A stretch of 64,000 nucleotides of DNA, taken from NCBI GenBank assembly GCA_902560245.1, contig CACELK010000001.1, positions 1 through 64,000 of the forward strand, read 5' to 3'. The DNA is from an uncultured Pelagibacteraceae bacterium. Its GTDB lineage: Bacteria > Pseudomonadota > Alphaproteobacteria > Pelagibacterales > Pelagibacteraceae. The notes under the pieces were generated by a model, which saw nothing but the letters and a program-made list of their open reading frames with translations, searched no databases and was not told the origin of the DNA. Position 1 is the first letter of the stretch. Every line of letters begins with the position of its first letter. Shown piece by piece: positions 1,326 through 26,046 of the stretch. The position numbers were made by a program, and so were the translations under genes.

Positions 1326-1433
1326 TTATTTTTTTTTTCTTTTAAAACTACCTTTGCCTTTTTTAGGTTTTATTATTCTAGGTCTATATTTTTGAGATCC
1401 CAGATCTTTTGCTATTAAGTTTTTTTTTTTCAT
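1326..1433 (-). CDS. ArfA-like alternative ribosome-rescue microprotein (35 aa)
   Basis: I translated this small ORF directly: it begins MKKKNLIAKDLGSQKYRPRI and ends with KPKKGKGSFKRKKK. The block LGSQKYRPRI followed by KKGKGSFKRK resembles E. coli ArfA (LHDPLFRQRV, KKGKGSYMRK), the segment that recruits a release factor and sits in the empty mRNA channel of stalled ribosomes. The ATG overlaps the stop of the upstream regulator gene as ATGA, supporting translational coupling. It ends 1 nt from the convergent kinase stop. It lacks the long C-terminal tail of E. coli ArfA. A generic basic ribosome-associated peptide is the alternative. Confidence 0.6.
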   Translation of the reverse strand: MKKKNLIAKDLGSQKYRPRIIKPKKGKGSFKRKKK

Positions 1434-2026
1434 TCTATCAAATAACCTTCTTTAAAACTTAAAATAAAATGATCATCTTGAAACTTTTCTTTTATTTTTT
1501 TTCTTAATCTATATATGTGAGTTTCAACTGTGTGGGTTTCAAGGTCTGGCGAATACTTCCAAATTTCTTTCTGCAAAATTTCTATTTTTTTTGGTTCATT
1601 TTGTTTTTTTAAAAATAAGATAATATCAACTTCTTTTTCTGTTAATTTTAGTTCATCCTTATTTTTAGAAATTGTTCTTGAATTTAAATTTAAATTATAA
1701 TTTTTAACATCAATTTTTGATTGAAAGTTATATTTTTGCTTTATTAGTTGTATATTTATTTTATCTAATATTTTAAACAATTGATCGGGAAAGTGATTTA
1801 AATTTAAAATATTTCTAGCATCAATTTTAACCTTGCTTAATTTTAGATTATTATCAGGTTTTGTAATAATAGTAGTATTATTTAAATTCTTATCTTTCTC
1901 AAAATCTTTTAAAAAATCATTTATATCTTTATAATTTTTTGGATCAAAAGATAAAATATCTCGGATTTCATTTAAAATTTTATATAATTCATTAAACTGG
2001 ACAAAATTAACAATTTGTTTATTCAT
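1430..2026 (-). CDS. OmpR/PhoB-type winged-helix transcription factor with degenerate receiver domain
   Basis: 198 aa. Residues from about 118 form a transcriptional-activator winged helix: LTEKEVDIILFL, an HTH around EILQKEIWKY, then VETHIYRLRKKI and a final GYL strand, as in OmpR/PhoB regulators. The N-terminal half has receiver-like length and alternation, but I find no acidic pocket near the start and no phospho-acceptor Asp in the expected strand, where it reads TTIITKPDNN. It therefore probably acts without phosphorylation. It lies 11 nt from the divergent YkuD gene and is coupled to the ArfA-like ORF. Target genes are unknown. Confidence 0.75.
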   Translation of the reverse strand: MNKQIVNFVQFNELYKILNEIRDILSFDPKNYKDINDFLKDFEKDKNLNNTTIITKPDNNLKLSKVKIDARNILNLNHFPDQLFKILDKINIQLIKQKYNFQSKIDVKNYNLNLNSRTISKNKDELKLTEKEVDIILFLKKQNEPKKIEILQKEIWKYSPDLETHTVETHIYRLRKKIKEKFQDDHFILSFKEGYLIE

Positions 2027-9558: not shown

Positions 9559-10407
9559 CTAATAATTAGATTTTATAACATCAATTAATTTATTTAACTG
9601 CTCAAGATCTTTATAGTTTAAAGTTAAGCTTCCAGAATTGTTTTTTTTATTTTTAATTGAGACATTTAATCCAATCTTATCTGAAAGGGATAGCTCTAGC
9701 TGTGAGATATTTGGATCTTTTGTTTTAACTTTTCCAGTTTTTTTGCTTTTAAAGATTTTAACAAGACTTTCCGCTTGACGCACTGATAACTTTTTTTCAA
9801 TAATTTTTTTTGCAATAAAAAAAGCATTTTCAAGTCCTACTAAAACCTTTGCATGTCCTTGAGATAATTTACCATTTTCAATTAACTTAGTTACTTCAGA
9901 TGGTAAACTAAGAAGTCTTAAACAATTTGCTACATGGCTTCTGCTTTTGCCAATAAATTTTGAAACCTTGTCTTGATCATAGGAAAACTCATTAATTAAC
10001 TTTTGATATCCTTGAGCTTCTTCTACAGCATTTAGATCATGTCGTTGAACATTTTCAACTATTGCAAATTCTAGAGATTTAAGGTCGTCTGCTTGTGTTA
10101 CAACAACTGGAACTTCATGCAAACCTGCCTTTTGAGCTGCTATCCATCTTCTCTCGCCAGCAATGATTTCATATTTATTATTTTGTTGTTCTGATCTTCT
10201 AACTATTATTGGTTGGATTATGCCCCTTTCCTTTATAGAATTAGTAAGATCTTGTAAGCTTTCGGAGTCAAAGTTTTTTCTTGGTTGATATTTATTTCTT
10301 GTAAGATCGCCTATTAAAACTTTTGTAGTATTTTTTTCAGTTTTAGTTTCTCCTATTAAAGATGATAATCCTCTGCCTAAACCTTTTCTAATTTTTGATG
10401 TATCCAT
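9559..10407 (-). CDS. parB: Chromosome-partitioning protein ParB
   Basis: 282 aa. The N-terminal KGLGRGLSSLIG tail binds and stimulates ParA. The CTPase/sulfiredoxin-like domain contains IIAGERRWIAAQ and ENVQRHDLNAVEEA. The HTH region YDQDKVSKFIGKSRSHVAN binds parS, and the C-terminal dimerisation domain follows. It overlaps the parA stop by 1 nt (TAATG). A probable cognate parS is 1.4 kb away inside rsmG, and the presumed origin is 9 kb away. Confidence 0.97.
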   Translation of the reverse strand: MDTSKIRKGLGRGLSSLIGETKTEKNTTKVLIGDLTRNKYQPRKNFDSESLQDLTNSIKERGIIQPIIVRRSEQQNNKYEIIAGERRWIAAQKAGLHEVPVVVTQADDLKSLEFAIVENVQRHDLNAVEEAQGYQKLINEFSYDQDKVSKFIGKSRSHVANCLRLLSLPSEVTKLIENGKLSQGHAKVLVGLENAFFIAKKIIEKKLSVRQAESLVKIFKSKKTGKVKTKDPNISQLELSLSDKIGLNVSIKNKKNNSGSLTLNYKDLEQLNKLIDVIKSNY

Positions 10408-11201
10408 TATGCAGCGCTCTCAAATTTTTTATCCTGATTTATAAATTCTTCTGTAAAATTAAAATAAGAGATACTTCCAGGACAACTTTTGTCATAAATT
10501 AGTACTGGTACACCATGCGAAGGTGCTTCTGATAATCTTACATTTCGTGGAATAATGGTATTATAAACCTGATTATTAAAATAATCTCGCGCTTCTTTTT
10601 CTACCTGAGATGAAAGTTTATTTCTTTTGTCATACATCGTAAGTAGAATACCGCGAATTTTAAGATCTTTGTTTAAATTTGATTTAATTCTTTCTATGGT
10701 TTTCATCAATTGCGTAAGTCCCTCTAATGCAAAAAACTCAGTTTGAAGAGGGACAACAAGGGAAAAAGAGGCTACAAGTGCCATGACAGTTAATAAGCTC
10801 AGAGATGGAGGACAATCAATAAAAATATAGTCATAACTACCTTCATAATCATTTAAATAAGCCATTAATTGATCCTTTAAAATAAATGCTCTTTTGCTAT
10901 CTCCTGCCGTCTCGACCTCTAAACCAGACAAATCTACATTAGATGTAATTATATCAAGATTTTTAATATTAGTTTTTTTGATAACTTGACTAATTGTTTT
11001 AGTTCCATTTAATACTCCATAAATTGTGTCACTAGAATTTTCAATATTTGACAATCCTAAACCTGTTGTTGCATTTCCTTGAGGATCTAAATCAATAACT
11101 AAAATTTTTTTTTCTTTTTTTGATAGGCCAGCTGCAAGATTGATTACTGTTGTGGTTTTGCCTACTCCACCTTTTTGATTTATTATTGAGATAATTTGCA
11201 T
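10407..11201 (-). CDS. parA: Chromosome-partitioning ATPase ParA
   Basis: 264 aa, Walker-type ATPase. The deviant Walker A KGGVGKTTTVINLA is at about residues 10-23, and Walker B lies in YDYIFIDCPPSLSLLT. A short N-terminus with no HTH marks the chromosomal (type Ib/Soj) class. Together with parB and the nearby parS it forms the origin segregation system. Start lies 4 nt after the rsmG stop. Confidence 0.97.
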   Translation of the reverse strand: MQIISIINQKGGVGKTTTVINLAAGLSKKEKKILVIDLDPQGNATTGLGLSNIENSSDTIYGVLNGTKTISQVIKKTNIKNLDIITSNVDLSGLEVETAGDSKRAFILKDQLMAYLNDYEGSYDYIFIDCPPSLSLLTVMALVASFSLVVPLQTEFFALEGLTQLMKTIERIKSNLNKDLKIRGILLTMYDKRNKLSSQVEKEARDYFNNQVYNTIIPRNVRLSEAPSHGVPVLIYDKSCPGSISYFNFTEEFINQDKKFESAA

Positions 11202-11205
11202 TAAT

Positions 11206-11850
11206 TTAAAATTTTTTTTTTATATTTTTAATACTTAATAAAAAAGAGTCCTGATTAGTAAGACTCCTTTTTTCTTTATACTCAAAATCCCAATCCTTTA
11301 AAGTTTGAGATAATATTTTTTTTCCACTTTTACCCATAAATAAAATTAAATTTTTATATTTGTTAAAATTTTTATAAACTAAATCTAGAACTATCGGCAT
11401 TGGCTTAAAGGCTCTTGCCATTATTGTGCCGGAGCTTATTTCTCTTATTTTGAATACGTCTTCTTGAATTACTTCTGTTTGTAAATTTAATTCTTTTGAT
11501 ACCTCTTTAAGGAAAGAGCTTTTGTGATAACTTTTTTCAAATAAATTAATTTTAATCTTTTTTTTTAGATTTTTTGCCATAATAGCGATTACAATTCCTG
11601 GCATTCCTCCTCCAGTTCCTAAATCACAGGTTGTATTATCATTTAAATCAACAAATTCAATAGCTTGCGCAGAGTCTATTATATGTCTTTGACGAATTTC
11701 CTTATTTTCTCTAGCTTTTTTACTAATTATATTAATTTCACGATTTTTACGTTTTATCATTGATATAAACTTTTCAAAGTCTAGACACGTTTCACGTGAA
11801 ACATTTAATCCATCTAATTTAGAATAATTTTTTAACGAATCATCTTTCAT
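11206..11850 (-). CDS. rsmG: 16S rRNA (guanine-N7) methyltransferase RsmG
   Basis: 214 aa SAM-dependent methyltransferase that modifies G527 of 16S rRNA. The SAM-binding motif is CDLGTGGGMPGIVIAI. The N-terminal segment NVSRET is encoded by a parS-like palindrome, so the sequence has a double role. It overlaps mnmG by 1 nt (TAATG) and is followed by parA-parB, the standard origin-proximal order. Confidence 0.97.
   Translation of the reverse strand: MKDDSLKNYSKLDGLNVSRETCLDFEKFISMIKRKNREINIISKKARENKEIRQRHIIDSAQAIEFVDLNDNTTCDLGTGGGMPGIVIAIMAKNLKKKIKINLFEKSYHKSSFLKEVSKELNLQTEVIQEDVFKIREISSGTIMARAFKPMPIVLDLVYKNFNKYKNLILFMGKSGKKILSQTLKDWDFEYKEKRSLTNQDSFLLSIKNIKKKF
11788..11803. other. parS centromere site (ParB-binding palindrome)
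   Basis: CGTTTCACGTGAAACA matches the bacterial consensus TGTTTCACGTGAAACA at 15 of 16 positions, and the central 14 bases are a perfect palindrome. In this AT-rich context a match by chance is very unlikely. It sits in the N-terminal coding part of rsmG, where it encodes Val-Ser-Arg-Glu-Thr on the minus strand. ParB encoded 1.4 kb away is the expected binder. Confidence 0.93.
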
Positions 11851-15185: not shown

Positions 15186-16454
15186 TTAAGCTGGTTTATT
15201 CATAGAATTAAAAAACTCTGCATTATTTTTAGTGTTTTTTAATTTTGAATTTATAAATTCTATGGCATCCATTGTTCCCATTGGAGCTATAATTCTTCTT
15301 AACACATTCATTTTTTGCAAGTCGTTTTTATCAAAAAGCAATTCTTCTCTTCTTGTCCCTGATTTAGTTATATCTATTGCTGGAAATATTCTTTTTTCTG
15401 AAATTTTTCTATCTAGAATAGTTTCACTATTACCTGTTCCTTTAAATTCTTCAAAAATTACTTCGTCCATTCTGCTGCCGGTATCAATTAAGGCAGTTGA
15501 AATTATAGTTAAAGATCCACCTTCCTCAATATTTCTTGCTGCTCCAAAGAATCTTTTTGGCCTTTGTAAGGCGTTTGCATCCACACCTCCTGTTAAAACT
15601 TTTCCAGAACTTGGTATTACTGCGTTATAAGCTCTTCCAAGTCTTGTTATTGAGTCAAGAAGAATTACAACATCCTTTTTATGCTCGGTTAATCTTTTCG
15701 CTTTTTCAATTACCATTTCAGCAACCGCTACATGTCTCTGCGCTGGTTCATCAAATGTTGAGCTAATTACTTCTCCTTTTACAGTTCTTTGCATATCAGT
15801 TACTTCTTCTGGTCGTTCATCTATAAGCAAAACCATTAAATAGCATTCTGGATAATTAGCAGCTATAGAGTTAGCTATACTTTGTAAGATCATAGTTTTA
15901 CCAGCTTTAGGAGGAGATATAATCAATGATCTTTGTCCTTTACCTATTGGACTGACTAAGTCTATTAATCTAGGAGTTAAATCTGGTTTTTTTTCAGTTT
16001 TATTACTTTCAACCTCCATAACCAATTGTTTATTAGGATAGAGAGGAGTCAGGTTATCAAATGCAATTTTATGTCTAGATTTTTCGGGTTCTTCAAAATT
16101 AATCTTACTGACCTGAAGTAATGCAAAATAACGCTCCCCATCTTTTGGTGCTCTTACAGGTCCTTCGACTGTATCACCGGTTCTTAGGCCAAACCTTCTA
16201 ATTTGACTTGGACTAACATAAATATCATCTGCTCCAGGTAGATAATTTGATTCCATTGCTCTAAGAAATCCAAATCCATCTTGAAGTAGTTGTAGAACTC
16301 CTCCTCCAGTGATTTCCTCTTTTTCTGCAAGTTTTTTTAAAATTGCAAAAACTATTTCCTGTTTTCTCAGCGTGCTTGCATTCTCAATACCAAGCTCTTC
16401 TGCTTGATTTATTAGATGTTCAGAGGTTTTTGTTTTAAGTTCTTGTATGTTCAT
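15186..16454 (-). CDS. rho: Transcription termination factor Rho
   Basis: 422 aa, hexameric RNA helicase. The N-terminal helical domain ([10 protein letters not shown]) and CSD RNA-binding domain ([19 protein letters not shown]) are followed by Walker A PPKAGKT near residue 180 and the [10 protein letters not shown] block; Q-loop and R-loop regions are intact. It is short at the N-terminus, lacking the insert seen in some phyla. With few intrinsic hairpins visible in this window, Rho probably ends many transcripts. Confidence 0.98.
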
Positions 16455-17058: not shown

Positions 17059-18057
17059 TTATTTAACAAAATATTTTTGGATTAATGTTTCAAATAGTTC
17101 TATATGATCATCATTATCATTTAAACATTTTACCACATCGAAATTTTTTCCACCGGCATCAATAAAACTATTTTTACCCTCAATAGAAATTTCTTCCAAA
17201 GTCTCAACACAGTCACTTGCAAATCCAGGACATATTACTAATAAATTTTTAATTCCCTCGCTCGGTAGTTTTTCTAAAGTCTTATCTGTATATGGCTGAA
17301 GCCAAGCCTGTGGGCCAAACCTGGACTGGAATGTAGTTCTAATTGGTATTTTCTTATAACTTTCTGAAAGAAGTCGAGATGTTTTTTGACAGTAACAATG
17401 GTAAGGATCCCCTTTGTCGAAGTATTTCTGTGGTATTCCATGATAAGAAGCCAAAATAAGATCTGGTATCCACTCTATTTGTGATATTTTTTTTTCAATA
17501 CTATTTTTAAGTGCATATATATATTTTGTTTCTGATTCATAATGTGAAATAATCTGTAAACTGGGTTGCCACCTCATTCCCATTAAACTTCTATATACCT
17601 CATCACAAACTGTTGCTGTTGTTGCTGCTGCATATTGAGGATATAACGGCAAAATAATCAAATTTTCACAACCCTGTCCTTTAAGTTCAAAAATTTTACT
17701 TCTTATACTTGGATTTCCGTAACGCATAGCAAAATCTATTGTTATATCATCTGATGTAAATTTCTGTCTTAGTTTATTTGTTTGCATTTCAGTGTAAAAT
17801 CTTAAAGGAGATTTATTTACATCTTTCATCCAAATTTTTTTATATGCTCTTGCTGTTTTTGAAGGTCTGAATGTAAGTATAAATAAATTTAAAATTATTT
17901 TCCAAATTATAGGATTAACCTCTATTACCCTTCTGTCTGACAAAAATTCTTTCAAATACTTTCTTATGTCCCACCAACTAGTGGAGTCTGGCGTGCCGAG
18001 ATTGACTAAAAGAACTCCAGTTTTGCCGTACTGTATTTTTGGATGATTTTTATTCAT
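17059..18057 (-). CDS. hemH: Ferrochelatase
   Basis: 332 aa, inserts ferrous iron into protoporphyrin IX. N-terminal GVLLVNLGTPDS is the family opening, the catalytic His lies in SYHGIPQKY, and the acidic metal-path residues are in GFASDCVETLEEI. The protein ends without a cysteine-rich tail, so no iron-sulphur cluster is predicted. Start overlaps the hemE stop by 4 nt, forming hemE-hemH-hemG. Confidence 0.97.
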   Translation of the reverse strand: MNKNHPKIQYGKTGVLLVNLGTPDSTSWWDIRKYLKEFLSDRRVIEVNPIIWKIILNLFILTFRPSKTARAYKKIWMKDVNKSPLRFYTEMQTNKLRQKFTSDDITIDFAMRYGNPSIRSKIFELKGQGCENLIILPLYPQYAAATTATVCDEVYRSLMGMRWQPSLQIISHYESETKYIYALKNSIEKKISQIEWIPDLILASYHGIPQKYFDKGDPYHCYCQKTSRLLSESYKKIPIRTTFQSRFGPQAWLQPYTDKTLEKLPSEGIKNLLVICPGFASDCVETLEEISIEGKNSFIDAGGKNFDVVKCLNDNDDHIELFETLIQKYFVK

Positions 18058-19061
18058 TTAAAATCTTTTACTAAATTTACTAAATATTTAACAGACTCAA
18101 CTTTTGTCTTTGGCAAAATTCCATGACCCAAATTAAATATATATGGATGATCTCTAAAAATTTCTAGGTATTTGATTGCCTCTTTTTTTATTTGATATTT
18201 GTCCCCAAACAAAATCTTGGGGTCTAATCCCCCCTGGACGGGTATGTGTATTTGCTTAAGAATTTTTTTTGGGTCAACCTGATAATCGATATTGATCGCA
18301 TCGGGATTTATTTTCTTACAATAAGTTTTATAGTCTTTTATGCCTCTTGGAAAACATACTACAGGCACACCAAGTCTTTTTGTGAATTTGACAAGCTCTT
18401 TGGTAGGTTTATATAGTAAATCGTCTTTATTTTTTTCATTATTTAAGAGGCCTGCCCAACTATCAAAAATTTGAATAATACTTGCTCCATTATTAACTTG
18501 TTCTTTAATGTGAATCTTTAAAAAGTCGATTATTGTTCTGAATAATTCTCTTTCATTTTTGTTATGAAATATATAATTATTTTTCTTAAACTCTTTTGGT
18601 GATTTTCTATTTTTCATATAAAGAAACACAGTCCAAGGAGCACCAATAAAACCGAAGAGATCTTTTTTTTTTAAAATTTTATCATTAGATACAACTTTAA
18701 TTGATTTATAAACTGGTTTTAATTTTTCTATAAAATCTGCTTTTTTAATCTTTTTTATTCTCTTAAAATTAAGTTTACCCAATAAAGGACCGAGGCCCTT
18801 AGTAAATTTAACCTCTTGTCCCAAAGCGTATGGTAACATTAATATATCGGAAAAAATTATTGCTGCATCAAAGTTAAATCTTTTTAGCGGCTGTAGAGTT
18901 ATTTCAGGCACAATCTTTTTATTTAAACATAATCTAATAAAATCTGGATGCTGTTTTCTTATACGTCTAAATTCAGGTAAATATCTTCCAGCCTGTCTCA
19001 TTATCCAAATAGGATTAATGTCTGTTTTCTTATCTTCAATACATTCTTTAATTAGACCCAT
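18054..19061 (-). CDS. hemE: Uroporphyrinogen decarboxylase
   Basis: 335 aa, converts uroporphyrinogen III to coproporphyrinogen III. The N-terminal signature PIWIMRQAGRYLPEFR contains the substrate-binding arginines, and IIFSDILMLPYALG holds the catalytic Asp. Its start borders the A/T-rich gap interpreted as oriC, the same arrangement as hemE beside the origin in Caulobacter and Rickettsia. Confidence 0.97.
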   Translation of the reverse strand: MGLIKECIEDKKTDINPIWIMRQAGRYLPEFRRIRKQHPDFIRLCLNKKIVPEITLQPLKRFNFDAAIIFSDILMLPYALGQEVKFTKGLGPLLGKLNFKRIKKIKKADFIEKLKPVYKSIKVVSNDKILKKKDLFGFIGAPWTVFLYMKNRKSPKEFKKNNYIFHNKNERELFRTIIDFLKIHIKEQVNNGASIIQIFDSWAGLLNNEKNKDDLLYKPTKELVKFTKRLGVPVVCFPRGIKDYKTYCKKINPDAINIDYQVDPKKILKQIHIPVQGGLDPKILFGDKYQIKKEAIKYLEIFRDHPYIFNLGHGILPKTKVESVKYLVNLVKDFK

Positions 19062-19347
19062 AAATTAATGTTATTATAATAGTTTAATAGTAGTAGTATT
19101 GTATGTGAATATTGTTAATTAATAATTATTAACAAATTATACATTTTTTATTAACAAAATAAATGTTATTAAAAATACTGTATATTAGCTAATTTGTGGC
19201 GCTATTTAATTTTATTATATTAAATGTATATTATTTATTAACCTTAATAATTATGTTTATAAATACATTGTTTTACAAATAAAAAATAAAATTTTCTATT
19301 TGTTAGAAAATGAAATAATAAATACACAAGTTATTAAGGTTTTATAC
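19062..19347. other. oriC: Probable chromosomal replication origin (oriC)
   Basis: 286-nt noncoding gap, the longest in the window, almost only A and T apart from a small island TTTGTGGCGCTA at 19194-19205. It lies between hemE and ppsR, the position of oriC in Caulobacter crescentus and Rickettsia. Genes to the left run away on the minus strand and genes to the right on the plus strand, so transcription follows presumed fork movement on both sides. Repeats resembling a DnaA box (TTATTAACA) occur at 19126 and 19148 and in inverted form at 19113. No perfect TTATCCACA box is present. Confidence 0.75.
19112..19158. repeat. Direct and inverted repeats in the origin gap
   Basis: TTATTAACAAA occurs at 19126-19136 and again at 19148-19158. 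TTGTTAAT (19112-19119) and ATTAACAA (19128-19135) form a perfect 8-bp inverted repeat around TAATAATT. The unit TTATTAACA differs from the relaxed DnaA box TTATNCACA at one position. A further 10-mer AATGTTATTA is found at 19067 and 19162. Some repetition is expected in such AT-rich DNA. Confidence 0.5.
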
Positions 19348-20172
19348 ATGAATAGTACTTATCAAATATACTTAATTTCGGACTCAACTGGTGAAACTTT
19401 AGATAGAATTTTTCTAGCACTAAAGGCTCAATTTAAAAATTTTAATTATAAAATACACTCATATTCTTTTACTAGAACAGAAAATCAGATATTAAAAATT
19501 ATTGATATTGCAAATAAACAAAAAAATTCAATAATTTTATATACAATAGTAGATGTTTCTCTTGCTAATTTTTTATTAAAAGAAAGCGAAAAATATAAAA
19601 TTCCGTGTTTTAGTGTGTTGGGGGATTTAATAATTAATTTTTCAAAAATACTTAACCAAAAAGCATCACATTTACCAAGTGGTCAACATACTCTTAATGA
19701 AGAATACTATAATAGAATTGAAGCAATTCAATTTACAATGAATCATGATGATGGAAATTTAATAAACGATTTGGAAAAATCTGACATAATATTATTGGGA
19801 GTTAGTAGGACAAGCAAAACCCCAACATCTATATATCTGGCCAATAGAGGTTTAAGGACGTCTAATATCCCATTAATTAACGAATACTCTGTCCCAGAAT
19901 TACTAAGGAAAAATCCTAAAATATCCTGTGTAGTTGGCCTAACAACTGAGCCAGCAAGGCTATTAGACTTGAGGAAAAATAGAATGAATTCTCTAAAAGA
20001 AAATGAACCAATTAATTACACAAACTTGGAAGCAATTATAAAAGAAGTTGAAAAAGCAAAACAAACATTTAAAAAATATAATTGGCCTATGATTGATGTT
20101 ACTAGAAAATCAGTTGAGGAAACCGCAGCTTCAATCATAAAAATTCATGAAATTTATAAAAACAATGAATAA
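19348..20172 (+). CDS. ppsR: Pyruvate,phosphate dikinase / PEP synthase regulatory protein (DUF299)
   Basis: About 274 aa bifunctional kinase/phosphotransferase that uses ADP to inactivate and Pi to reactivate PPDK or PEP synthase. The P-loop is GVSRTSKTP and the N-terminus YQIYLISDSTGETLD is typical. I chose ATG at 19348 because family members begin a few residues before the SDSTGET block; an upstream in-frame TTG at 19300 would add 16 unrelated residues. This is the gene that flanks oriC in Caulobacter and Rickettsia. Confidence 0.92.
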   Translation: MNSTYQIYLISDSTGETLDRIFLALKAQFKNFNYKIHSYSFTRTENQILKIIDIANKQKNSIILYTIVDVSLANFLLKESEKYKIPCFSVLGDLIINFSKILNQKASHLPSGQHTLNEEYYNRIEAIQFTMNHDDGNLINDLEKSDIILLGVSRTSKTPTSIYLANRGLRTSNIPLINEYSVPELLRKNPKISCVVGLTTEPARLLDLRKNRMNSLKENEPINYTNLEAIIKEVEKAKQTFKKYNWPMIDVTRKSVEETAASIIKIHEIYKNNE

Positions 20173-20752
20173 AAATATAGTTTTGGCTTCAAAGAGTGAA
20201 GTTAGAAAAAATATATTAGAAAAAAATGGTTTTAGATGTGATATAATACCAGCAAACATTGATGAAGAGTCAATTAAAGAAAGTTTGTCAAAAGAAGGAG
20301 CAACACCAACAAATATTTCTAAAAATTTAGCCGAACTAAAAGCGAATAAAATAAGCCTAAGATCTTATGGAAAAATAGTAATAGGCGCTGATAGCGTAAT
20401 CGATCTTGAAGGCAATATAATATCTAAACCTCAAAACCGAGATGAAGCAATGTATATATTGGAGAAATTAAATGGAAAAACTCATCACTTAATTAGTTCC
20501 GTTTGTATTTCTATGGATGGTAAAATGATTTGGAATTATAGTGATAAAGCCAAACTGATAATGAAAAAAATGACTCACAAAGAGCTTAAAGTATATTTAT
20601 CAAAAATACCTGATAAAACTTTATATGCGTATAATGTTTACCAGATAGAAGGTGAGGGAAAAAATTTATTTTCTTCGATACACGGTGACAAAGATACTAT
20701 AATGGGATTACCTATAAAAAAGATAAAAGAATATTTAATAAATTTAAAATGA
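20165..20752 (+). CDS. maf: Maf-family nucleotide pyrophosphatase
   Basis: 195 aa. Opens NIVLASKSEVRKNIL, the Maf signature (LAS-S-RR-LL), with VIGADSVIDLEG in the active-site region. The family hydrolyses non-canonical or modified NTPs to monophosphates. ATG at 20165 is preferred over an in-frame ATG at 20147 because members start immediately before the LAS strand. The start overlaps the end of ppsR by 8 nt. Confidence 0.92.
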   Translation: MNKNIVLASKSEVRKNILEKNGFRCDIIPANIDEESIKESLSKEGATPTNISKNLAELKANKISLRSYGKIVIGADSVIDLEGNIISKPQNRDEAMYILEKLNGKTHHLISSVCISMDGKMIWNYSDKAKLIMKKMTHKELKVYLSKIPDKTLYAYNVYQIEGEGKNLFSSIHGDKDTIMGLPIKKIKEYLINLK

Positions 20753-24262: not shown

Positions 24263-24685
24263 TTGAAAAAAAAACTTACAGAAAAAGACAAAAAAGATTG
24301 GAATAACTTTCTTCAGAGTAAATCTAAAGTTTTTAATAAAGATGTAAGTGGAAAAGAAAGTTTAGATTACGCAATTAAACTTAAAACAATTGATCTTCAT
24401 GGATATTCGCTTGAAAATGCAAATAAGACTATTAAAGAATTTATTAAAAATTGTTCAAAAAATAATGTTATTAAAATAAATGTTATTACTGGAAAAGGAT
24501 TAAGATCAAATATTATGAATGATCCCTACATTTCTAAAGATTTTAGTATATTGAAATATTCAGTACCAGATTTTATTAAAAAAGACGAAGAGTTAATGAG
24601 TTTAATTAAAGAGATAAAAGTATCTGAAAAAGACATAGGTGGAACAGGAGTTTTTAGTATTTTTTTGAAAAAATTTATAAAATAA
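24263..24685 (+). CDS. Smr-domain protein
   Basis: 140 aa. The C-terminal two-thirds is an Smr (small MutS-related) domain with [12 protein letters not shown] and the nuclease/nucleic-acid-binding loop VITGKGLRS. The start appears to be TTG directly after the restored Tim44-like stop, suggesting translational coupling. Alphaproteobacterial genomes often place a Smr protein after the Tim44-like gene. Substrate is unknown. The last 11 nt overlap hslU. Confidence 0.85.
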
Positions 24686-26046
24686 ATTTTGATAAATCTG
24701 TGTCTTTAACTAATTCTCCTAGATTTTTCTTAACATATTCAGAATTCACAGTTATAGTTTTACCCGAGTTATCGGTTGCGGTAAAACTTATATCATCTAA
24801 AACTCTTTCAATTATTGTATGAAGTCTTCTTGCACCTATATTTTCCACAGTCGAGTTAACCTCAGTTGCTAAATTTGCTATAGTGTCTATACCATCATCA
24901 GTGAATTCAAGATCAACATTTTCAGTCTTTAAAAGAGCTTTATATTGTTTAATTAAAGAATTATCAGGCTCTTTTAAAATTCTCTTGAAATCTTCACTGG
25001 TTAAAGCATCAAGCTCAACCCTTATAGGCAATCTACCTTGTAGTTCAGGCAACAGATCTGAAGGTTTTGCAAGTTGAAAAGCTCCTGAAGCTATGAACAA
25101 AATATGATCAGTTTTAATAGGGCCATATTTTGTACTTACTGTTGTTCCTTCAATAAGAGGCAAAAGATCTCTTTGTACACCTTCTCTAGATACGTCCCCT
25201 CCAACTCTATCAGTACGAGCTGAAATTTTATCTATCTCGTCTAAAAAAACTATTCCATTATTTTCAGTGGAATTTTTTGCGGCTTTAATAATTTTATCTT
25301 GTTCGATTAATTTATCTGATTCTTCATTTATTAAAATTTCATGAGATTCTTTGACGGTCATTTTCTTTTTTTTTGGTTTATTACCCATAGATTTTCCCAA
25401 CATTTCACCTATATTTATCATACCTACATTAGCACCTGGCATACCAGGTATTTCGAAAGATGGCATTGAGTTACTTTCATTTACTGCAATTTCAATTTCA
25501 TTATCATCTAGGTCTCCATTTCTTAATCTTTTTCTAAAACTTTCCCTTGTTGCTATACTTGCTTTGTTGCCAACCAAAGCATCAAGGACTTTTTCTTCAG
25601 CATTTTTTTTGAGCTACAGCAGCAACTTCTTTTCTTTTTTTAACTTTTTCCATAGCTATAGCAATTTCTAGCAAGTCTCTTACTATCTGTTCAACATCTC
25701 TTCCAACATATCCTACCTCTGTAAATCTAGTCGCCTCCACTTTTACAAAAGGTGCCTCAGCTAACTTTGATAATCTTCTTGAAATTTCTGTCTTACCAAC
25801 TCCAGTAGGTCCTATCATTAAAATATTTTTAGGCAGAACTTCATCTTTCATTTCATCTTGAAGTGCTTGTCTCCTCCATCTATTTCTCAGGGCTATTGCA
25901 ACAGCTCTTTTAGCTTTATTTTGTCCAACTACAAATCGATCCAACTCTGAAACAATTTCTCTTGGAGATAATGAACTGATGTATGAACTATTATCATTAA
26001 TATTTTTTTCTTTTGGAACTAAATTTGTAATATTAGATTTTTGCAT
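24675..26046 (-). pseudogene. hslU: ATP-dependent protease ATPase subunit HslU, interrupted by a one-base insertion
   Basis: Two minus-strand frames together make one HslU of about 456 aa. The 5' part (26046-25597) has the [20 protein letters not shown] region, Walker [10 protein letters not shown] and [12 protein letters not shown] pore loop, then ends VAQKKC. The 3' part continues after an A8 tract at 25603-25610 with [20 protein letters not shown] Walker B and the C-terminal [15 protein letters not shown]. Removing one A gives a seamless [17 protein letters not shown]. All other domains look intact, so this may be a sequence error, a recent lesion, or a gene kept alive by slippage. Confidence 0.9.

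What the first reader, a model, noticed from the sequence alone, without database searches (positions are those of the whole stretch)
19062..19347. Chromosome origin candidate between hemE and ppsR
The longest noncoding gap in the window is almost pure A/T and has the same neighbours (hemE and the DUF299 gene) as oriC in Caulobacter and Rickettsia. Genes diverge from it, and parABS, rsmG and mnmEG lie within 10 kb. The assignment of oriC for this lineage is inference.
Basis: partly seen in the sequence, partly recalled or inferred. Interest (0 to 1): 0.75.

Follow-up and report, generated by a model that had tools for sequence, protein, structure and literature searches.

The report
Chromosome replication origin of SAR11 bacteria
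A 286-base, 86% A/T gap between the hemE and ppsR genes of a SAR11 ocean bacterium is very likely where its chromosome starts to be copied: the gap stays in relatives in which either neighbouring gene is gone from that place, it is rich in DnaA-like sites across its family, and strand bias sampled along eight complete relatives' chromosomes switches close to it.

Summary
The gap 19062-19347 (286 bp, 86% A/T) lies between divergent hemE and ppsR, with parB-parA-rsmG-mnmG-mnmE-rho on one side and maf-aroE-coaE-dnaQ on the other. The origin reading is strongly supported. (1) Motif-blind 9-mer counting in 46 non-redundant relatives' gaps ranks TTATTCACA, TTATCAACA and TTATTAACA, all DnaA-box forms, first. 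(2) In eight single-contig relatives (sampled), the origin position that best explains raw GC skew or leading-strand gene bias falls within 70 kb of the gap in all eight. (3) A parS core occurs once in 13 of 14 genomes, 7-20 kb from it each time. (4) Two natural deletions leave the gap in place: hemE|gap|maf in a sister family without ppsR (16 of 16 examined), rho|gap|ppsR in one genus (7 of 7 examined). The site is the known Caulobacter/Rickettsia one, but shorter, without clear CtrA- or IHF-site signal, in a lineage where no ctrA was found, and with boxes mostly carrying A where the classical consensus has C. Initiation itself is inferred, not shown. Limits: silent-site GC skew does not switch consistently; box counts vary (0-5); the sister family's boxes are weaker.

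The parts
19062..19347 (.). Predicted oriC: the whole hemE-ppsR gap, 286 bp, 86% A/T
   Evidence: gap 258-289 bp in 135 f1 loci and 255-291 bp in eight further hemE-flanked loci; 265-281 bp beside maf in sister family; 346-353 bp beside rho in genus g9
19104..19112 (-). DnaA-box column 1, ATATTCACA here (1 mismatch); TTATTCACA is the consensus of 57 near gaps; holds the most conserved 9-bp stretch
19126..19134 (+). DnaA box 2, TTATTAACA
19137..19145 (+). DnaA-box column 3, degenerate here (TTATACATT); TATTCACA-like in relatives
19148..19156 (+). DnaA box 4, TTATTAACA
19192..19207 (.). Conserved block of unknown role (AAaTGAAGC in relatives; ATTTGTGGCGCTATTT here)
   Evidence: holds the second most conserved 9-bp stretch
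19225..19234 (-). DnaA-box-like column 5 (CAATCCACA in 7 of 46 non-redundant gaps), degenerate here
19235..19243 (+). DnaA-like TTATTAACC (1 mismatch); TTATTAACG or TTATTAACA in near relatives
19254..19262 (-). DnaA box 6, TTATAAACA
19318..19326 (+). Conserved AATAATACA-type element, promoter-like (-10) for ppsR by my reading; untested
19331..19339 (+). DnaA-box column 7, degenerate here (TTATTAAGG); TTATTAACA in relatives; an exact box lies 5-9 nt before the ppsR start codon in 91 of 135 gaps
18054..19061 (-). hemE, left flank
19348..20172 (+). ppsR (DUF299/COG1806), right flank
20147..20752 (+). maf, which is the right flank in the sister family that lacks ppsR
15186..16454 (-). rho, which is the left flank in genus g9
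11788..11803 (.). parS-like palindrome CGTTTCACGTGAAACA, inside rsmG; the only GTTTCACGTGAAAC in the 1.06 Mb assembly (84% complete)
10407..11201 (-). parA
   Evidence: general ParA-family matches
9559..10407 (-). parB

Best explanation
The 286-bp hemE-ppsR gap is very likely the chromosomal replication origin (oriC) of this SAR11 bacterium, where DnaA is predicted to bind a row of TTATNMACA-type boxes, open the very A/T-rich DNA and start two forks. Shown: the gap, its box enrichment, its persistence where either neighbour is gone, the strand-bias switch near it in sampled complete relatives, and a single nearby parS core. Inferred: DnaA binding, unwinding, helicase loading and bidirectional firing, by analogy with other DnaA origins; ParB on the parS 7 kb away would then pull the new origins apart. 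CtrA, which silences the Caulobacter origin, is unlikely to be the regulator, because no ctrA was found here; timing would have to come from DnaA supply and activity, perhaps with GcrA and GANTC methylation.
For: De novo 9-mer count in 46 non-redundant gaps (of 110): top three are TTATTCACA (17 of 46, 0.36 expected), TTATCAACA (17, 0.48), TTATTAACA (37, 3.06); TTATNMACA 2.78 per gap against 0.18 shuffled. Background is 0.195 boxes per kb in 2.403 Mb sampled from eight relatives, where 3 or more boxes in 280 bp occur at two places, one being an origin gap (G078); in the window the gap is the only such cluster. Of 135 f1 gaps, 106 have 3 or more boxes. Raw GC-skew contrast peaks at 28, 67, 26, -39, -29, 0, 24, 0 kb from the gap, and pooled leading-strand gene fraction peaks 13 kb from it, 0.647. 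One parS core in each of 13 of 14 genomes, 7.3-19.7 kb from the gap, control pattern 0. Sister family f2: no ppsR match in the 18 f2 genomes listed, and hemE|265-281 bp|maf in 16 of 16 hemE loci. Genus g9: rho|346-353 bp|ppsR in 7 of 7 examined. Own DnaA keeps the RDHTT helix aligned to E. coli domain IV 1j1v. dnaA lies 63-73 kb off in the six f1 genomes compared, with lower leading-gene fraction there in six of six and at most one box per dnaA locus of about 3 kb.
Against: No replication data: no coverage or binding assay was possible. At four-fold silent sites GC skew does not switch consistently, so raw skew largely follows gene orientation and the two skew tests are not independent. The gaps of complete relatives G043 and G017 have one exact box each; L003 and L026 of 135 and L391 have none. 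One other cluster of three boxes exists in the sample (L116, G043). For G017, 20% of positions explain gene bias as well as the gap and its 80% bootstrap interval (26 to 271 kb) excludes the gap; intervals are 72-490 kb wide and the G043 median is 117 kb off. f2 boxes are weak (0.50 per gap against 0.11 shuffled). CtrA-type TTAAN7TTAA is 0.46 per gap against 0.27 shuffled (sd 0.07), a slight excess within the range of 200 shuffles. No dif site was placed. G026 has no exact parS core. Five f1 genomes of 90% completeness or more had no ppsR hit and were not followed up. The TTATNMACA form was chosen after seeing the alignment; TTATNNACA and the 9-mer count were not.
Confidence: 0.93

Rival explanations
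1. The gap is only a shared promoter and regulatory region for the divergent hemE and ppsR genes, with DnaA perhaps acting as a transcription factor there.
For: Conserved, promoter-like elements (my reading) sit at both ends (19087-19095 and 19318-19326), and a box lies 5-9 nt before the ppsR start in 91 of 135 gaps.
Against: A gap of like length remains when ppsR is gone (16 of 16 f2 loci, boxes weaker) and when hemE is gone from there (7 of 7 g9 loci, boxes kept); strand bias and parS point here too. A promoter can coexist with an origin.
Confidence: 0.03
2. The real origin is nearby but elsewhere, for example at dnaA (63-73 kb away in six relatives) or beside parAB, and the gap is a DnaA-titration or regulatory cluster.
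For: Skew mapping resolves only tens of kilobases or worse; for G043 the gene-bias peak lies on the dnaA side.
Against: Leading-strand gene fraction is lower at dnaA than at the gap in 6 of 6 genomes tested; the 13 dnaA loci of about 3 kb carry at most one box each; the window has no second cluster of 3 or more boxes.
Confidence: 0.03
3. The gap is a neutral A/T-rich remnant and the boxes are what base composition gives.
For: The genome is very A/T-rich and other 286-bp windows are equally A/T-rich.
Against: Boxes exceed dinucleotide shuffles 15-fold across relatives; length is held at 258-289 bp in 135 loci, although only five gaps of 120 bp or more were left in this window after calling ORFs of 90 aa or more.
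Confidence: 0.01

Closest known systems
Caulobacter crescentus Cori and Rickettsia origins (hemE - COG1806/ppsR)
   Same: Same flanking genes, intergenic site more A/T-rich than the genome, DnaA boxes (flanks, sites and lengths of the known origins from passages of PMC1914354); a par cluster near it is recalled for those species.
   Different: 286 bp instead of 383-404 bp; no CtrA-site pattern and no IHF consensus in the window; no ctrA found; boxes of the family mostly TTATNAACA (341 of 432 TTATNMACA, counted by hand).
Wolbachia/Ehrlichia/Anaplasma origins (COG1253 - hemE)
   Same: One ancestral flank (hemE) kept while the other changed, as in the sister family here (passages of PMC1914354).
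   Different: There the paper infers rearrangement that put COG1253 in place of COG1806; here ppsR is missing and maf is next, or hemE is gone from the site and rho is next.
Generic DnaA-dependent bacterial oriC (E. coli type; recalled)
   Same: Clustered 9-mer boxes of TTATNNACA form in an A/T-rich intergenic region; DnaA helix RDHTT kept.
   Different: Position 6 of the box is A more often than C; no GATC enrichment (0 in the window gap, 0.20 per gap against 0.13 shuffled).

Membership tests
DnaA-dependent bacterial oriC | Cluster of DnaA boxes beyond chance in one intergenic region | tested here: met
   only cluster of 3 or more in the window
DnaA-dependent bacterial oriC | A/T-rich unwinding region | tested here: met
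   86% A/T; unwinding itself not testable
DnaA-dependent bacterial oriC | Chromosome strand bias switches at the site | tested here: met
   raw skew and gene strand in 8 of 8 sampled complete relatives within 70 kb; silent-site GC skew inconsistent
DnaA-dependent bacterial oriC | DnaA with intact box-recognition domain | tested here: met
   L001 ORF hits TIGR00362 at 473.9 bits (cut-off 343.9) and aligns to 1j1v with RDHTT kept
DnaA-dependent bacterial oriC | Initiation in cells / read-depth maximum | not testable with these tools
   no reads; PMC9589681 reports a single high-coverage origin in SAR11 but the passages read give no gene position
Caulobacter/Rickettsia-type CtrA-regulated hemE-COG1806 origin | Flanked by hemE and COG1806 (ppsR) | tested here: met
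Caulobacter/Rickettsia-type CtrA-regulated hemE-COG1806 origin | CtrA sites TTAA-N7-TTAA | tested here: not met
   0 in the window gap against 0.72 shuffled; in relatives 0.46 per gap against 0.27 (sd 0.07, largest shuffle 0.52), a slight excess at most
Caulobacter/Rickettsia-type CtrA-regulated hemE-COG1806 origin | CtrA protein in the genome | tested here: not met
   3-5 Trans_reg_C hits per genome in 12 genomes. Four representatives examined: PhoB (over cut-off), an OmpR-like and a CreB-like regulator, and one without receiver domain; two score 121.9 and 143.6 of 350 bits on the CtrA model, the third does not list it among the 25 shown. The other hits, G005's fifth included, were not typed one by one. 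PMC2877005 found no ctrA in Pelagibacter (passage)
Caulobacter/Rickettsia-type CtrA-regulated hemE-COG1806 origin | IHF consensus site | tested here: not met
   0 in the window, 0.22 per gap in 110 gaps (no shuffle control)
Caulobacter/Rickettsia-type CtrA-regulated hemE-COG1806 origin | Classical boxes TTATNCACA | tested here: inconclusive
   0 in the window, but at least one in 80 of 135 f1 gaps; TTATCCACA itself counted twice in 135

The most novel reading that the evidence does not exclude
SAR11 runs a stripped-down, CtrA-free chromosome origin of about 270 bp with A-type DnaA boxes, which has been held at one site across at least two families of the order while the genes on either side were lost, and whose firing is governed by DnaA supply with GcrA/GANTC methylation rather than by a CtrA brake.
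Probability: 0.4. Interest if true: 0.6.

Novelty: new variant of a known kind. Interest (0 to 1): 0.42.

Why it matters
SAR11 is among the most abundant groups of cells in the sea (recalled), and growth estimates from metagenomes depend on knowing where copying starts. A gene-anchored origin (hemE|gap|ppsR, hemE|gap|maf or rho|gap|ppsR, with a parS 7-20 kb away) can be found even in fragmented single-cell genomes. It also gives a defined 270-bp target for asking how an alphaproteobacterium without CtrA times replication.

Tried and rejected
Four-fold-site GC skew gave no consistent switch. CtrA and CcrM (GANTC) sites were tested as alternative conserved motifs: GANTC is not enriched (0.04 per gap against 0.14), CtrA-type at most slightly. 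Rfam at gathering thresholds lists only a tRNA in the window. dnaA as the origin was rejected on gene bias and lack of boxes. The AAaTGAAGC block (19192-19207) stays unexplained. Rows dropped: L043 (cut contig) and L001 (dnaA locus) before the 110-gap count; L043, L156 and L157 before the 135-gap count, the last two then analysed; L394 (fragment without a usable ppsR start) and L369 (hemE locus without ppsR). The g9 genome G047 had no ppsR hit and is not among the seven. Named loci and G-handle loci were not checked for being the same genomes, so the 110 and 135 are not all independent; the 9-mer test used 46 dissimilar gaps.

Full report
What is there. The window lies on contig C1 of a 1.06 Mb, 31-contig assembly, 84% complete; the 80 named relatives kept for its PpsR (the best of 365 confirmed) are all Pelagibacteraceae/Pelagibacterales (SAR11) records. 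The gap 19062-19347 separates hemE (-) from ppsR (+), 286 bp with 40 G+C. From the gap leftwards run hemE, hemH, a hemG-type gene, rho, mnmE, mnmG, rsmG, parA and parB, all on the minus strand; rightwards run ppsR, maf, aroE, coaE and dnaQ on the plus strand. Window-scale skew changes sign at the gap but also at several other places, following gene orientation, so it is not evidence by itself.

Conservation. 110 of 112 sequences (window included) give a divergent hemE-ppsR gap of 266-289 bp; with more loci, 135 of 138 and 258-289 bp; eight further hemE-flanked loci from rarer genera have 255-291 bp. Counting all 9-mers in 46 non-redundant gaps against dinucleotide shuffles, without naming any motif, puts TTATTCACA, TTATCAACA and TTATTAACA at the top and TTATAAACA seventh. 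These are forms of the DnaA box TTATNNACA. TTATNMACA averages 2.78 per gap against 0.18. The classical TTATCCACA is absent from the 46 gaps and counted twice in 135; TTATNCACA of any kind occurs in 80 of 135 gaps, so the A-type is the commoner form (341 of 432 TTATNMACA, summed by hand), not the only one. GANTC is not enriched; the CtrA pattern is slightly so at most. In 57 near gaps, 7 of the 14 most conserved 9-bp stretches fall on box columns, counting the box-like column 5; the others include promoter-like elements at both ends and an AAaTGAAGC block of unknown role. In this genome columns 3, 5 and 7 (19137, 19225, 19331) have decayed and column 1 has one mismatch, so it has three exact boxes: 19126, 19148 and 19254.

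Not just density of A/T. In 2.403 Mb sampled from eight relatives, boxes occur at 0.195 per kb; 3 or more within 280 bp occur at two places, one of them the G078 gap, the other in G043 away from its gap. Two of the eight relatives (G043, G078) had their gap inside the sample; G043's gap has one exact box. Counts vary: 106 of 135 gaps have 3 or more, two have none, and one further gap (L391, genus g7) has none.

Chromosome scale. From 20 stretches of about 15 kb in each of eight single-contig relatives, I scanned candidate origins with an antipodal terminus. The position maximising leading-strand genes lies 25, 68, 35, -46, -21, 1, 29 and -30 kb from the gap (G009 lacks hemE there, so its gap is rho-ppsR). 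The raw GC-skew contrast peaks at 28, 67, 26, -39, -29, 0, 24 and 0 kb. Pooled in the ppsR orientation, gene bias peaks at +13 kb with 0.647. Single genomes are imprecise: 80% bootstrap intervals are 72-490 kb wide, and that of G017 (26 to 271 kb) leaves the gap out. The two measures are not independent, because raw skew follows gene orientation: at four-fold sites GC skew has no consistent switch, while T-A shows leading genes relatively A-rich in seven of eight. At dnaA, 63-73 kb away in the six f1 genomes compared, leading-gene fraction is lower than at the gap in six of six.

parS. The core GTTTCACGTGAAAC occurs as one palindromic site in 13 of 14 whole genomes (none in G026), with zero for the reversed control pattern. 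Distances to the gap are 7.3-19.7 kb, gap positions entered by me from ppsR or hemE hits. In the window it is at 11788-11803 within rsmG.

Two natural deletions. In the sister family f2, none of the 18 genomes listed has a ppsR match (35 further genomes without a match are not named there); 16 of the 18 gave a hemE locus, and in 16 of 16 the next gene is maf, identified by BLAST with window Maf (34-39% identity), with a gap of 265-281 bp. Its boxes are weaker: 0.50 exact per gap against 0.11 shuffled, 4.06 with up to one mismatch against 1.74. In genus g9, seven of seven genomes examined have rho (81-82% identical to the window's), not hemE, across a 346-353 bp gap from ppsR, with 2.00 exact boxes per gap against 0.14; hemE lies elsewhere (G009 at 718 kb). 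A promoter region for hemE and ppsR has no evident reason to stay when either gene has gone; an origin has.

Machinery. The own DnaA passes TIGR00362 (473.9 against 343.9 bits) and aligns to E. coli domain IV 1j1v with the RDHTT helix identical; that 1j1v holds DNA and which residues touch bases is recalled. DnaA keeps RDHTT in 13 of 13 f1 and f2 genomes. GcrA matches in 12 of 12 genomes (the control search also rang, oddly, in one archaeon). Trans_reg_C proteins number 3-5 per genome; the four representatives examined are PhoB, an OmpR-like and a CreB-like regulator and one without receiver domain, none of them CtrA; the rest were not typed one by one. PMC2877005 likewise found no ctrA in Pelagibacter (passages). 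PMC9516812 reports a GANTC methylation trend between ori and ter in Pelagibacter, with ori placed by GC skew for the MAG (passages). PMC9589681 reports a V-shaped SAR11 coverage with one origin (passages). Neither passage set names the genes at the origin.

Known or new. The hemE-COG1806 site is the experimentally known Caulobacter origin and the predicted Rickettsia one (PMC1914354, passages). Searches for SAR11 with oriC, Pelagibacter with origin of replication and GC skew, Pelagibacter with DnaA box, and SAR11 with replication origin (listings, of which only PMC9516812 and PMC2031905 were opened, in passages) showed no title or abstract start that defines the SAR11 origin at this gap; the library is open-licence papers only, and databases of predicted origins were not available and may list it. 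So the site is an expected one; what is added is the evidence, the prevailing A-type box, the lack of clear CtrA/IHF signals and the survival through loss of either neighbour.

Noticed in passing
window 24675-26046: hslU is split into two ORFs (25597-26046 matches profile 1-121, 24675-25577 matches 148-441 of TIGR00390), a broken gene or an assembly error; hslV beside it looks whole.
   Followed up: partly
complete relatives G043, G078, G017, G026, G063, G040, G009 (sampled stretches): At four-fold silent sites leading-strand genes are relatively A-rich over T in seven of eight genomes, opposite to the usual T-rich leading strand (stated in a passage of PMC2031905); no significance test was made and codon selection is a possible confounder.
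   Followed up: partly
G040:C1:358209-359176: hemE beside the gap is in two overlapping pieces, one with two in-frame stops, in this complete genome.
   Followed up: no
window 19192-19207: A G/C-bearing block (AAaTGAAGC in relatives) in mid-gap holds the second most conserved 9-bp stretch and fits no motif tested.
   Followed up: partly
window 1430-2026: A 198-aa protein with only a C-terminal Trans_reg_C domain; by the positions each of the 12 genomes has a Trans_reg_C hit 17-28 kb from the gap (open frames 189-244 aa).
   Followed up: no
genus g9 genomes, e.g. G009:C1:718082-719053: hemE is not at the origin, and the copy found elsewhere scores lower in six of seven g9 genomes (E 1e-52 to 1e-58; G066, with 3% contamination, 1e-89), suggesting replacement by a divergent hemE.
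   Followed up: no
f1 genomes G149, G160, G204, G232, G290: Five genomes of 90% completeness or more in the window's genus gave no ppsR match: assembly gaps or further losses of the right flank.
   Followed up: no
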